Shown here one piece after another: positions 4,427 through 39,411 of a stretch of 44,447 nucleotides of DNA. The DNA is from a virus. The notes beneath the pieces are model-generated. The model was not told the DNA's origin. It saw only the letters and a program-made list of their open reading frames with translations, and ran no database searches. The DNA lies in the IMG/VR virus record IMGVR_UViG_3300000553_000080, positions 1-44,447 of that record; one strand, 5' to 3'. How positions within the stretch are numbered: position 1 is the stretch's first letter; each line of letters opens with the position of its first letter. Both the position numbers and the translations under genes were made by a program.

Positions 4427-4503
4427 CGCGGGGTAGATCAGTCAGGTAGATCGTTCGGCTCATAACCGAAAGGCCGTTGGTTCGAATCCAACCCCCGCAA
4501 CCA
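4427..4503 (+). tRNA. tRNA-fMet (anticodon CAT), initiator-like
   Basis: A complete 77-nt cloverleaf. Acceptor CGCGGGG (4427-4433) pairs with CCCCGCA (4493-4499) except for C1 and A72, the mismatch that marks bacterial initiators. The D stem GATC/GATC has the A11:U24 pair, another initiator mark. The anticodon loop CTCATAA (4459-4465) carries CAT at 4461-4463. T stem and loop: GTTGG-TTCGAAT-CCAAC. Discriminator A and an encoded CCA end at 4503. The anticodon stem TTCGG/CCGAA has a C29:G41 pair where E. coli has the first of three G:C pairs. It is transcribed with the late genes, 8 nt before the spike gene. Confidence 0.93.
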
Positions 4504-30706: not shown

Positions 30707-30846
30707 TTGGCACCCCCTTTCTTTTTATGGAGCGCGTGTTTTTTCTTTAACAACTCAGTCGGAACTGAAGCGCGGCGGATGCGTGCCCAAAAACGGCAGC
30801 AGTACCAGCATTTGCAATTCACGGTTGAATCACATTTGGTTTTCAT
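30703..30846 (-). CDS. 47-residue Cys-rich basic protein
   Basis: ATG 30846 to TGA 30703. MKTKCDSTVNCKCWYCCRFW followed by a very basic tail (KKKHALHKKKGGAK). Five cysteines in 13 residues suggest a metal knuckle. It overlaps the next gene's GTG and starts inside the 24-codon frame upstream. Confidence 0.5.
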   Translation of the reverse strand: MKTKCDSTVNCKCWYCCRFWARIRRASVPTELLKKKHALHKKKGGAK

Positions 30847-30904
30847 AATAGCTTGTATCCTTTCGCCCGAAGGTATCGATGTCGGTTTCTGTTTGAGTTT
30901 TCAT
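30830..30904 (-). CDS. Possible 24-residue peptide
   Basis: ATG 30904 overlaps the AAA+ gene's stop (ATGA) and stops at 30830, inside the Cys-rich gene. It encodes MKTQTETDIDTFGRKDTSYY and four more residues. It may only serve to couple translation. Confidence 0.35.
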   Translation of the reverse strand: MKTQTETDIDTFGRKDTSYYENQM

Positions 30905-31570: not shown

Positions 31571-31604
31571 TCCCCGGCGCATCGAAAGACGCGCCGGGGA
31601 TTTT
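31571..31604 (+). terminator. GC-rich hairpin downstream of the LRR gene
   Basis: TCCCCGGCGC (31571-31580) and GCGCCGGGGA (31591-31600) form a perfect 10-bp stem with loop ATCGAAAGAC, followed on the plus strand by TTTT. On the minus strand, the direction of the surrounding genes, there is no T run, so it may be a pause or processing site. A run of nine G (31610-31618) lies beside the LRR stop codon. Confidence 0.45.
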
Positions 31605-31618
31605 GCTTCGGGGGGGGG

Positions 31619-33001
31619 TTATTTTTTGCCAGACTGGAGATTTGAGTATTTTATTTTCAAGTCTCTCCTCAGGTCGAGGGTCTTGCAGTCAGCCGGGAAC
31701 GTCACGCCTTCGGGTAACGTGGTGAGACTGCTCAGGTCGAGGGTCTTGCAGTTAGCCGGGAACGTCACGCCTTCGGGTAACGTGGTGAGACTGTTCAGGT
31801 AGAGGGTCTTGCAGTCAGCCGGGAACGTCACGCCTTCGGGTAACGTGGTGAGACTGCGCAGGTAGAGGGTCTTGCAGTCAGCCGGGAACGTCACGCCTTC
31901 GGGTAACGTGGTGAGACTGTTCAGGTCGAGGGTCTTGCAGTCAGCCGGGAACGTCACGCCTTCGGGTAACGTGGTGAGACTGTTCAGGTAGAGATACTCG
32001 CACTTAGCCGGGAACGTCACGCCTTCGGGTAACGTGGTGAGACTGTTCAGGTAGAGGTACTCGCACTTAGCCTGGAACGTCACGCCTTCGGGTAACGTGG
32101 TGAGACTGCTCAGGTCGAGGCACTCGCACTTAGCCGGGAACGTCACGCCTTCGGGTAACGTGGTGAGACTGCTCAGGTCGAGGGTCTTGCAGTCAGCCGG
32201 GAACGTCACGCCTTCGGGTAACGTGGTGAGACTGTTCAGGTAGAGATACTTGCAGTTAGCCGGGAACGTCACGCCTTCGGGTAACGTGGTGAGACTGCTC
32301 AGGTAGAGGCACTCGCACTTAGCCGGGAACGTCACGCCTTCGGGTAACGTGGTGAGACTGTTCAGGTAGAGGTGCTCGCACTTAGCCGGGAACGTCACGC
32401 CTTCGGGTAACGTGGTGAGACTGCTCAGGTAGAGGTACTCGCACTTAGCCGGGAACGTCACGCCTTCGGGTAACGTGGTGAGACTGTTCAGGTCGAGGGT
32501 CTTGCAGTCAGCCGGGAACGTCACGCCTTCGGGTAACGTGGTGAGACTGTTCAGGTAGAGGCACTCGCACTTAGCCTGGAACGTCACGCCTTCGGGTAAC
32601 GTGGTGAGACTGCTCAGGTAGAGGTACTCGCACTTAGCCGGGAACGTCACGCCTTCGGGTAACGTGGTGAGACTGCGCCACACGTCTGAATACTTTTCGT
32701 GGTCTGCAAAGTATGAATCAACTTTTTTTCCGGTCAATAAAGCCTGAAGCTTTTCATAGTGGTTGCGGATTTTATCTTTCAGCTTTTCTGGGCATTCGTC
32801 GTGATTGCGAATTAGTTTTGAATCCGATGGAAACGCGCCTTCGCCATTCCATTCTGCTTCAAATACGCGAATGATTTCATTCGGTTTATTGTCCCGCCAG
32901 TTAGCGGCCTTAATCATCCCTGAGTGGGAGTTAGTTGAGTTGTGGTAAAGCTCGGCTGTTTCTCCGAGCATCCGACCAATGATTGAATGGAACGTACACA
33001 T
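31619..33001 (-). CDS. Leucine-rich-repeat protein with 16 near-identical repeats
   Basis: 460 residues. Residues 1-109 are a unique domain (MCTFHSIIGRMLGETAELYH ... NWRDNKPNEIIRVFEAEWNG), a style I associate with phage proteins of unknown role. Residues 110-445 are sixteen 21-residue repeats of SLTTLPEGVTF-(P/Q)A-x-C-x-x-L-x-L-x. The last 15 residues are basic. Repeat variation is confined to six positions (12, 14, 16, 17, 19 and 21), the pattern of a binding surface. YopM/IpaH-type LRRs are similar in length. No signal peptide is present, so it acts in the cytoplasm or on the virion. Role unknown. Confidence 0.8.
   Translation of the reverse strand: MCTFHSIIGRMLGETAELYHNSTNSHSGMIKAANWRDNKPNEIIRVFEAEWNGEGAFPSDSKLIRNHDECPEKLKDKIRNHYEKLQALLTGKKVDSYFADHEKYSDVWRSLTTLPEGVTFPAKCEYLYLSSLTTLPEGVTFQAKCECLYLNSLTTLPEGVTFPADCKTLDLNSLTTLPEGVTFPAKCEYLYLSSLTTLPEGVTFPAKCEHLYLNSLTTLPEGVTFPAKCECLYLSSLTTLPEGVTFPANCKYLYLNSLTTLPEGVTFPADCKTLDLSSLTTLPEGVTFPAKCECLDLSSLTTLPEGVTFQAKCEYLYLNSLTTLPEGVTFPAKCEYLYLNSLTTLPEGVTFPADCKTLDLNSLTTLPEGVTFPADCKTLYLRSLTTLPEGVTFPADCKTLYLNSLTTLPEGVTFPANCKTLDLSSLTTLPEGVTFPADCKTLDLRRDLKIKYSNLQSGKK
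31667..32674 (-). repeat. 63-bp tandem repeat array, 16 copies
   Basis: 1008 bp of tandem units encoding the LRR region. Long stretches are identical in all copies (for example CGCCTTCGGGTAACGTGGTG), showing recent expansion or homogenisation. Copy number is likely unstable by recombination or slippage. It is not CRISPR: units are contiguous and coding. Confidence 0.95.
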
Positions 33002-33032
33002 ACTATTATCTATTTATTTTGTTGATGGTTGA

Positions 33033-33374
33033 CTATTTCTTTGAGGGTTTAGCTGACTTGATGGGTTTATCCGCTTTGGCGGCGGCGGCGATGACATCCA
33101 CTCGCCCGGAAGATGCCGGATTCGCTTTGTCGCCGCGCACTTCGGCGGCGAGTTGTTTAATCAGGTCTAGCTGTGACTTCAATTGAGTTTCGAGCTGGTT
33201 GATCTTGTTGGCGTAGATACCGACGATGGCGTCGTCAGGGATGGACCAACCGCCGGTAGCGAACAGGTCAGCGAGGACAAGGCCGAGCACTTCCTTGCCG
33301 GCATCGGTTTGCAGGGCGGCACAAAGGGCTTCATCGGTTACGGCGGGGACAACTGCATTTTTGATTTTTGACAT
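33033..33374 (-). CDS. Small helical protein with basic tail, unknown
   Basis: 113 residues. Helical N-terminal half (DEALCAALQTDAGKEVLGLV), a coiled-coil-like middle (NKINQLETQLKSQLDLIKQL) and a Lys/Ala/Pro-rich tail. Leader ACACCTGA at 33389-33396. Between the Ycf46-like ATPase and the LRR gene. Function unknown. Confidence 0.55.
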   Translation of the reverse strand: MSKIKNAVVPAVTDEALCAALQTDAGKEVLGLVLADLFATGGWSIPDDAIVGIYANKINQLETQLKSQLDLIKQLAAEVRGDKANPASSGRVDVIAAAAKADKPIKSAKPSKK

Positions 33375-38673: not shown

Positions 38674-39411
38674 ATGGAATTGAAACCACAATTTGAACGG
38701 GTCGTATTTCCCGGTGTCGAAAACTCGGAAAAGGTGATGGAGCGGATTGCCGCAACGACGGACACGGTGATTCTTTCGTTCTCTGCCGGGAAAGATTCAA
38801 TCGCGGCATGGCTGGCACTCCGGCCCTACTTCAAGCGAATTGTCCCGTACTTCCTATACATCGTGCCAGACTTGGAATTTGTCGAAAACTCGCTGCGGTA
38901 TTACGAAGACTTTTTCGAGACACGGATTTATAGACTGCCGCATCATGGACTTTGGCGGATGCTGCGCGGCCTGACATTCCAGCCGCCGGGTAGGATTTCG
39001 ACAATTGAATCATTCGAGTTGGGGGATTTGGACTATGAAGAGCTACGCGACATGGTTTGCGTGACGGCGGACATTCCCCTCCGAACTTTTGACGCCAAGG
39101 GAATCAGGGCCGCAGATTCGATCATGCGCCGGTCCAACTTCAAGCTGCGTGGTGGTATCAATTGGAATCGGAATTTCTTTTATCCTGTTTGGGACTGGCG
39201 CAAAGCGGAATTGGTTCACCGGATAAAAGAGTCGGGCGCTTTGATGCCGATTGACTACCAACTTTTCGGACGGAGTTTTGACGGAGTTGATTTCCGTTTT
39301 CTCTATCCGGTCAAACAACACTTTCCAGATGACTACGCGAAGATTCTGGAATTTTTCCCCCTCGCGGAACTGGAATTGAAACGATACGAATATGCGAAAA
39401 CAACCTACTAG
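38674..39411 (+). CDS. PP-loop ATPase, PAPS-reductase-like
   Basis: 245 residues. The PP-loop SFSAGKDSIAAW begins at residue 35, followed by a Rossmann-like order of strands (VPYFLYIVPDLEFVENSLRY) and a conserved-looking FYPVWDW region typical of the phosphoadenosine phosphosulfate reductase family. Such phage proteins activate substrates by adenylation; actual substrates are unknown and may relate to sulfur chemistry or nucleic-acid modification. First gene of the rightward late region, under O3. It overlaps the next gene by 20 nt. Confidence 0.75.
   Translation: MELKPQFERVVFPGVENSEKVMERIAATTDTVILSFSAGKDSIAAWLALRPYFKRIVPYFLYIVPDLEFVENSLRYYEDFFETRIYRLPHHGLWRMLRGLTFQPPGRISTIESFELGDLDYEELRDMVCVTADIPLRTFDAKGIRAADSIMRRSNFKLRGGINWNRNFFYPVWDWRKAELVHRIKESGALMPIDYQLFGRSFDGVDFRFLYPVKQHFPDDYAKILEFFPLAELELKRYEYAKTTY

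What the first reader, a model, noticed from the sequence alone, without database searches (positions are those of the whole stretch)
31619..33001. LRR protein with sixteen near-identical repeats varying only at surface positions
Each repeat is 63 bp with almost invariant DNA, while six codons per repeat vary (K/D/N, E/K, Y/C/T/H, Y/D, S/N/R and P/Q). Recombination among copies could quickly make new binding surfaces without a reverse transcriptase. It may bind a host or rival-phage protein.
Basis: partly seen in the sequence, partly recalled or inferred. Interest (0 to 1): 0.7.

Follow-up and report, generated by a model that had tools for sequence, protein, structure and literature searches.

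The report
Phage accessory protein with variable arm
A bacterial virus carries an optional early gene whose protein joins a fixed head to an arm of sixteen almost identical repeats that differ only on their exposed face, and related viruses carry the same head on quite different variable arms, which looks like a quickly re-shaped binding tool.

Summary
ORF 31619-33001 (minus strand, 460 aa) holds sixteen in-phase 63-bp units in which six codons vary and fifteen are identical in DNA. AlphaFold gives a confident LRR solenoid. The variable residues lie on and beside the concave strand, not in the core, and variation is almost purely amino-acid-changing (10 columns to 1).

The first ~109 residues are a separate conserved head, unmatched in the libraries searched, found in 14 other viral contigs (two near-duplicates) and 3 Verrucomicrobia genomes. 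It is joined to at least four other, unrelated repeat arms, several varying in the same way. A phage 98.5-99.2% identical over more than 8 kb lacks exactly this gene, so it is accessory. It lies in an early replication/recombination region. Cultured phages show the same behaviour: Riemerella CRP5 and CRP6 have 4 and 2 repeats in otherwise near-identical genes; Edwardsiella Edno5 and GF-2 have 7 and 1.

Best reading: an accessory, probably intracellular protein whose re-shapeable arm binds a fast-changing partner, most likely host defence or a rival element. Binding and target are inferred. No reverse transcriptase was found. Closest concept: high-internal-conservation repeats of fungal NLRs.

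The parts
31619..33001 (-). head + LRR array gene, 460 aa
   Evidence: ORF and translation; AlphaFold2 pLDDT 93.1, pTM 0.86
32675..33001 (-). constant head domain, residues 1-109 (MCxFHSI...NSHS...EAEW...HY), no known family found
   Evidence: 14-sequence alignment, invariant M1 C2 F4 H5 S6 G13 H20 N24 S25 H26 N38 E48 E50 I78 H81 Y82 F98; no Pfam, PHROGs (E<=0.1), NCBIfam or PDB-sequence match
31667..32674 (-). sixteen 63-bp units, SLTTLPEGVTFPADCKTLDLS type, variable at codons 12, 14, 16, 17, 19, 21
31622..31666 (-). short C-terminal helix capping the array (RDLKIKYSNLQSGKK)
   Evidence: sequence and predicted helix 446-457
31617..33030 (.). segment absent from the 98.5-99.2% identical phage L172; ends share AACC, plus a C-run of different length (9 C here, 5 in L172)
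   Evidence: alignment and junction sequences
33033..33374 (-). 113-aa gene directly upstream, unknown; present in L172
33467..34954 (-). AAA ATPase (phrog_8638), upstream neighbour; also just upstream of head genes in L026 and L035
30901..31542 (-). small AAA / clamp-loader-like ATPase, downstream neighbour

Best explanation
The gene is an optional (moron-like) early gene of a temperate phage. It makes a protein, probably acting inside the cell, with two parts: a constant head of unknown activity, and an LRR arm whose concave face is the variable surface. The arm most likely grips a fast-changing protein partner, a host defence protein or a component of a rival element, while the head does a constant job such as inhibiting, recruiting or blocking. 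Units are gained, lost and homogenised by recombination or slippage, and amino-acid changes at exposed strand positions are favoured, so new surfaces arise without a reverse transcriptase. Shown: anatomy, confident fold prediction, exposure of the variable sites, excess of amino-acid changes, presence/absence between near-identical phages, unit-number change between near-identical cultured phages carrying genes of the same kind. Inferred: intracellular location, binding, the target class, and that the window's own array changes in number.
For: Sixteen units with only six variable codons. Exposed-face mapping: strand at unit 17-19 in all 16 units with variable 17 and 19 flanking buried L18 and L20; in L011, variable 3, 5, 7 alternate with buried L4 and V6. 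One synonymous to ten amino-acid-changing variable columns in the window array, p=0.009 against equal rates at all synonymous and exposed non-synonymous sites; five arrays pooled 1:26. The same head is joined to different arms: LRR (window, L025, L026), GGxLxVxGxAKLDA beta-helix (L007, L011), SGSVxVxxxATFTAP (L008-L010, L012-L014, L040), SSGDYSKAA (L017), YADAAAYAA (L015/L016, L018). The AKLDA and ATFTAP array families also occur joined to an unrelated C-terminal domain (L046, L049, L092, L120, L128). Near-identical phage lacks exactly this gene. CRP5 4 units and CRP6 2 units (132 bp = 2 x 66), upstream 2671 bp 99.96% identical; PT03 lacks just that gene. Edno5 7 units, GF-2 1 unit, same constant ends. 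Early-region setting: AAA, ligase and helicase here; exonuclease VIII, ERF and YqaJ genes beside other members; GF-2 array gene between N and cIII.
Against: No binding partner or phenotype is known. PADLOC gives no hit for the LRR protein; that library holds defence systems, not counter-defence. The window's array has no second allele in the data. The head has no assigned activity. The L012/L014 heads are 84% identical in DNA yet the array framework is identical outside the variable codons, so some arrays may be exchanged as wholes or constrained in DNA for another reason. Copy number in metagenomic arrays rests on assembly; the longest exact internal repeat here is 114 bp.
Confidence: 0.45

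Rival explanations
1. A prophage-borne sensor: expressed in the lysogen, the arm recognises an incoming rival phage and the head triggers or performs exclusion, as in NLR-like systems with high-internal-conservation repeats.
For: Temperate phage (integrase 18103-19290); repeats of this style are the sensor domains of fungal NLRs (PMC12222747, PMC4986451); prophages carry hotspots of anti-phage systems (PMC9122126).
Against: Sits in the replication/recombination early region rather than at a lysogenic or late-end cargo site; no NTPase, nuclease or death domain recognised in the head; no PADLOC hit; no promoter of its own above chance.
Confidence: 0.2
2. Ordinary recently expanded coding minisatellite: core constrained, surface free to drift, no selected variability.
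For: Tandem arrays expand and homogenise by default; some related arrays (Edno5, L120, L007) do carry synonymous differences.
Against: Neutral surface drift predicts about as many synonymous as exposed-site changes; observed 1:10 (p=0.009), pooled 1:26 in five arrays, of which L012 and L014 are related. Several unrelated arm types behind the same head vary at the corresponding exposed sites.
Confidence: 0.13
3. A modular nucleic-acid reader, each unit's exposed residues contacting DNA or RNA as in TALE proteins.
For: Near-identical units with a few linked variable positions (14/16 fully linked); neighbours act on DNA.
Against: LRR and beta-helix arms mostly bind proteins or sugars (own knowledge); variable residues include many acidic ones (D, E); the array types are unrelated folds, so no shared code is likely.
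Confidence: 0.07
4. Virion or secreted adhesin or receptor-binding protein varying for host range.
For: BspA-type LRRs and beta-helices occur in adhesins and tail fibres; DUF5649-like repeats, which resemble the L007 arm, are mentioned in a study of fibrillar adhesins.
Against: The gene lies in the early region among AAA, ligase and helicase genes, far from the portal, protease and fibre genes; the N terminus (MCTFHSIIGR) does not look like a signal peptide by eye; neighbours of the relatives are recombination genes.
Confidence: 0.05
5. A diversity-generating retroelement (or other targeted mutator) acting on NNC codons.
For: Most variable codons are NNC with changes at positions 1 and 2 (TAC, GAC, AAC, AGC, ACC, CAC, TGC, CGC), as in DGR targets; A is one of the states in 39 of 58 variable columns over nine arrays.
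Against: No RVT_1 match in this record or in nine others checked; no second copy of the unit elsewhere in the window; several variable columns lack A (14.3, 17.3, 19.1). Selection for polar residues gives the same bias.
Confidence: 0.03

Closest known systems
High-internal-conservation (HIC) repeats of fungal NLRs (Podospora het-d, het-e; PMC12222747, PMC4986451)
   Same: Near-identical solenoid or propeller repeats, variation confined to exposed positions, repeat-number polymorphism, concerted evolution, modular N-terminal domains.
   Different: Here in phage early accessory genes, with LRR or beta-helix arms and a head unlike any NLR part; no NACHT or NB-ARC domain.
Lamprey and hagfish variable lymphocyte receptors (own knowledge)
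   Same: LRR solenoid whose concave-strand residues vary.
   Different: VLRs are assembled somatically by gene conversion; here the variation is inherited, in a phage genome.
TALE-type repeat proteins (PMC11417379 for context)
   Same: Near-identical units with a few variable, specificity-type positions.
   Different: Different fold; no evidence of DNA reading.
Bacterial and giant-virus LRR proteins (Leptospira LIC11098, YopM, CroV588)
   Same: LRR superhelix: VIA-align Z 25.3, 24.3 and 24.3.
   Different: From own knowledge their repeats are far more diverged from one another; no MCxFHSI head. NCBIfam SlrP and Xop scores are far below their cut-offs.
Riemerella phages CRP5/CRP6 'ribonuclease inhibitor' and Edwardsiella phage GF-2 'collagen-like protein'
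   Same: Early accessory array genes beside recombination genes; present or absent, and longer or shorter, between near-identical or closely related phages.
   Different: Other constant domains and other repeat types; no MCxFHSI head.

Membership tests
Leucine-rich repeat proteins | Repeating LxxLxL units forming a curved solenoid with one strand per unit | tested here: met
   21-residue CxxLxLxxLxxLP unit; AlphaFold pLDDT 93.1, one strand per unit; TLR3 Z 25.5 rmsd 3.2 over 350 residues. No Pfam LRR model is listed for it.
HIC-repeat recognition proteins | Repeats over 85% identical, variation at exposed sites under diversifying selection | tested here: met
   15 of 21 codons invariant, mean identity between units about 18 of 21 residues; 1 synonymous to 10 non-synonymous columns, p=0.009
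HIC-repeat recognition proteins | Repeat-number polymorphism between alleles | tested here: inconclusive
   Not seen for this gene (only one allele found); seen in genes of the same kind: CRP5/CRP6 4 and 2 units, Edno5/GF-2 7 and 1
HIC-repeat NLRs | NACHT/NB-ARC NTPase in the same protein | tested here: not met
   Head has no Pfam match; no P-loop in the sequence by eye
Diversity-generating retroelements | Reverse transcriptase gene nearby | tested here: not met
   No RVT_1 match in the 44-kb record or in nine other records
Diversity-generating retroelements | Template repeat copy | tested here: not met
   The framework stretch occurs only in the array
Phage moron / accessory gene | Present in one phage, absent as a unit from a near-identical one | tested here: met
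   L172, 98.5-99.2% identical flanks, gene absent
Phage moron / accessory gene | Own promoter and terminator | tested here: inconclusive
   Two promoter-like sites found against 1.7 expected, none between the upstream gene and the start codon; 31-bp gap to the upstream gene suggests co-transcription
Known anti-phage defence systems | Match to a PADLOC model | tested here: inconclusive
   No hit for the protein or head; the library dates from 2023
Type III secreted LRR effectors (SlrP, XopAE, XopAC) | NCBIfam score above the curated cut-off | tested here: not met
   78.7 vs 1113, 44.4 vs 600, 41.9 vs 450 bits
Counter-defence (anti-immune) proteins | Neutralises a host defence in an assay | not testable with these tools
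   Needs plaque assays

The most novel reading that the evidence does not exclude
Phages maintain a shared stock of interchangeable, hypervariable solenoid arms (LRR, beta-helix, short-repeat and helical) that are combined with a few constant domains as optional early genes, and re-shape them by unit recombination and selection: a reverse-transcriptase-free recognition toolkit against changing intracellular targets.
Probability: 0.35. Interest if true: 0.82.

Novelty: new variant of a known kind. Interest (0 to 1): 0.62.

Why it matters
Fast-changing recognition in phages is usually ascribed to tail fibres and retroelements. If optional early genes with near-identical repeats do the same inside the cell, there is a second route to new binding surfaces, and a head domain unknown to the libraries searched to study. 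The cultured pairs CRP5/CRP6 and GF-2/Edno5 make it directly testable: otherwise near-identical or closely related phages that differ in array length.

Tried and rejected
Pfam DSRB and Phage_tail_APC hits above cut-off: rejected, the best stretches are only 11-16 residues and no single stretch passes. LPEGVTFP pattern in viral contigs: five of six loci read; no repeat array around the match. P0001 in genome contigs: no relative confirmed; the head alignment found one. Head against cultured phages and plasmids: no match. Head profile against PDB sequences: none. Higher-order block repeats in the window array: none beyond shuffles. Search of nine records carrying the upstream AAA for the head: none, but several are fragments. 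DNA comparison of the window region with cultured phages: none. Papers on phage proteins of this kind: none found. DGR: no RT, no template.

Full report
WHAT IS THERE. The ORF at 31619-33001 on the minus strand is 460 aa. Residues 110-445 are sixteen units of exactly 21 aa, all in phase, without indels. Fifteen codons per unit are identical in DNA in all sixteen; six vary: P/Q at 12, K/D/N at 14, E/K at 16, Y/C/T/H at 17, Y/D at 19, S/N/R at 21. A 30-base framework stretch occurs sixteen times in the window and nowhere else in it, against 0.00 expected by chance. Positions 14 and 16 are fully linked (K with E, D or N with K), which suggests two founder unit types; positions 19 and 21 are combined with either type. 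Fourteen of the sixteen units are distinct, and the order has no repeated pairs or lag signal, so this is not a simple run of fresh duplicates.

FOLD AND POSITION OF VARIATION. AlphaFold2 gives pLDDT 93.1 and pTM 0.86 for the whole protein. The arm matches solved LRR proteins: TLR3 Z 25.5, rmsd 3.2 over 350 residues; Leptospira LIC11098 Z 25.3 over 349. The strand falls on unit positions 17-19 in all sixteen units; L18, L20 and C15 are the inward positions of the LRR motif and never vary, while 16, 17, 19 and 21 are exposed positions of the LxxLxL motif. Four of the five canonical exposed positions vary (p=0.011).

SELECTION. If the surface merely drifted, synonymous change in the framework should be about as common as change at exposed codons. 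In the window it is 1 column against 10 (p=0.009); pooled over five arrays 1 against 26 (L012 and L014 are related, and the arrays were chosen after the fact). Smaller arrays (Edno5, L120, L007) do contain synonymous differences.

THE HEAD. Residues 1-109 are a separate domain (MCxFHSI...NSHS...EAEW...HY). It was found in 14 viral contigs other than the window, two of them near-duplicates, one Verrucomicrobiales MAG and two further genomes of that phylum. It has no match in Pfam or NCBIfam, none better than E 0.1 in PHROGs, none in PDB sequences, and none in cultured phages or plasmids. Invariant residues include C2, H5, H20, H26, E48, E50, H81 and Y82. One divergent member, L041, has lost H5 and H81 together, so a paired role such as a metal site is possible but untested.

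ONE HEAD, MANY ARMS. The same head carries unrelated arms: LRR units (window, L025, L026), a 20-aa GGxLxVxGxAKLDAPxLTxV unit (L006, L007, L011), a 19/20-aa SGSVxVxxxATFTAPxL unit (L008-L010, L012-L014, L040), a 9-aa SSGDYSKAA unit (L017) and an alanine/tyrosine-rich array (L015/L016, L018). L011 is predicted as a beta-helix, pLDDT 91.7, closest in the PDB to beta-helical proteins, Z 15.9. In L011, apart from a two-codon length difference, only codons 3, 5 and 7 vary, alternating with buried L4 and V6. The AKLDA and ATFTAP array families also occur joined to a different, C-terminal constant domain (L046, L049, L092, L120, L128). The arms therefore behave as exchangeable modules.

ACCESSORY GENE. 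L172, from another metagenome, is 98.5-99.2% identical to the window over more than 8 kb and lacks exactly this gene. The join reads AAATAGTCAACCCCCGAAGC; both window ends carry AACC, and the C-run differs in length. I saw no transposase gene and no target duplication. A second optional gene differs a few hundred bases on (L172 8640-9287), so this is an accessory pocket.

PARALLELS IN CULTURED PHAGES. Riemerella phages CRP5 and CRP6 carry a BspA-type LRR array plus the same C-terminal domain as L092/L120. They are 99.96% identical over 2671 bp upstream and into the gene, yet the array has four units in CRP5 and two in CRP6, an exact in-frame difference of 132 bp. Ten listed relatives match only 71% of that stretch at about 98% identity; in PT03, the one aligned, the gap is just that gene. 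Edwardsiella phages Edno5 and GF-2 have seven and one LRR-like units between the same constant ends. GF-2 also has a 20-unit SSG array, variable only at codons 4, 5 and 7 of 9, between genes annotated as N and cIII, a region where lambda-like phages keep anti-host genes (own knowledge).

SETTING. The window is a temperate phage: integrase, portal, protease, terminase, DnaB helicase. Around the gene lie two AAA ATPases and a ligase-like gene. The phrog_8638 AAA also lies just upstream of the head gene in L026 and L035. Exonuclease VIII lies beside it in L025 and L030, ERF and YqaJ beside it in L033. This argues for an early, cytoplasmic role rather than a virion part; it does not prove one.

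MECHANISM. Shown: the anatomy, the predicted fold, the exposed position of the variable sites, the excess of amino-acid change, gene presence/absence, and unit-number change in cultured phages carrying genes of the same kind. Inferred: that the arm binds a changing protein inside the cell, that the head acts on it or brings it to something, and that the partner is a host defence protein (most likely) or a rival element. Two observations remain unexplained: most variable codons are NNC, as in DGR targets, although no reverse transcriptase was found in ten records; and the array framework of L012 and L014 is identical in DNA although their heads are only 84% identical, which points to exchange of arrays or to a constraint not understood.

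NOVELTY. The logic is that of high-internal-conservation repeats, known from fungal NLRs (PMC12222747, PMC4986451). I found no paper describing it for optional early phage genes with exchangeable arms, within an open-access library only. Hence new variant of a known kind.

CAVEATS. Assembly: the longest exact internal repeat is 114 bp, so 150-base reads could resolve the array, but the copy number is not certain; several relatives' contigs end inside their arrays (L002, L004, L010, L013, L026). The host is probably a verrucomicrobium (head in three such genomes; DnaB 61% identical to one) but this is weak.

Noticed in passing
L172 8640-9287 (window counterpart 30708-30898): A second optional gene (216 aa, ...GWQNPKSWNYGCRFIIHRRWLTVVGDLGEAVYEWSE...) replaces ~190 bp of the window right after the small AAA gene; no Pfam or PADLOC match.
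   Followed up: partly
L046, L049, L092, L120, L128, CRP5/CRP6 (L222, L223): A second constant domain (AHGxTIxEAVxDLxFK...ITGACExG...) of unknown function recurs C-terminal to several array types, in viral contigs and in Riemerella phages.
   Followed up: partly
L012 4001-5536 and L014 2486-3727: Heads 84% identical in DNA, but the repeat framework is identical outside four positions, all four in variable codons.
   Followed up: partly
window 31667-32674; L224 3149-4195; L011: Variable codons are nearly all NNC with changes at positions 1 and 2, the pattern of DGR targets, without any reverse transcriptase.
   Followed up: partly
L041 (Verrucomicrobia genome G104): A head copy with H5 to L and H81 to I lost together, hinting at paired roles for these histidines.
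   Followed up: no
window 31573-31601: Perfect GC-rich inverted repeat (CCCCGGCGC / GCGCCGGGG) downstream of the array gene; present in L172 too, so it belongs to the phage backbone.
   Followed up: no
window 38674-39411: Phosphoadenosine phosphosulfate reductase-like gene (phrog_2302), an auxiliary metabolic type of gene.
   Followed up: no
window 4427-4503: tRNA-Met (CAT) gene among the structural genes.
   Followed up: no
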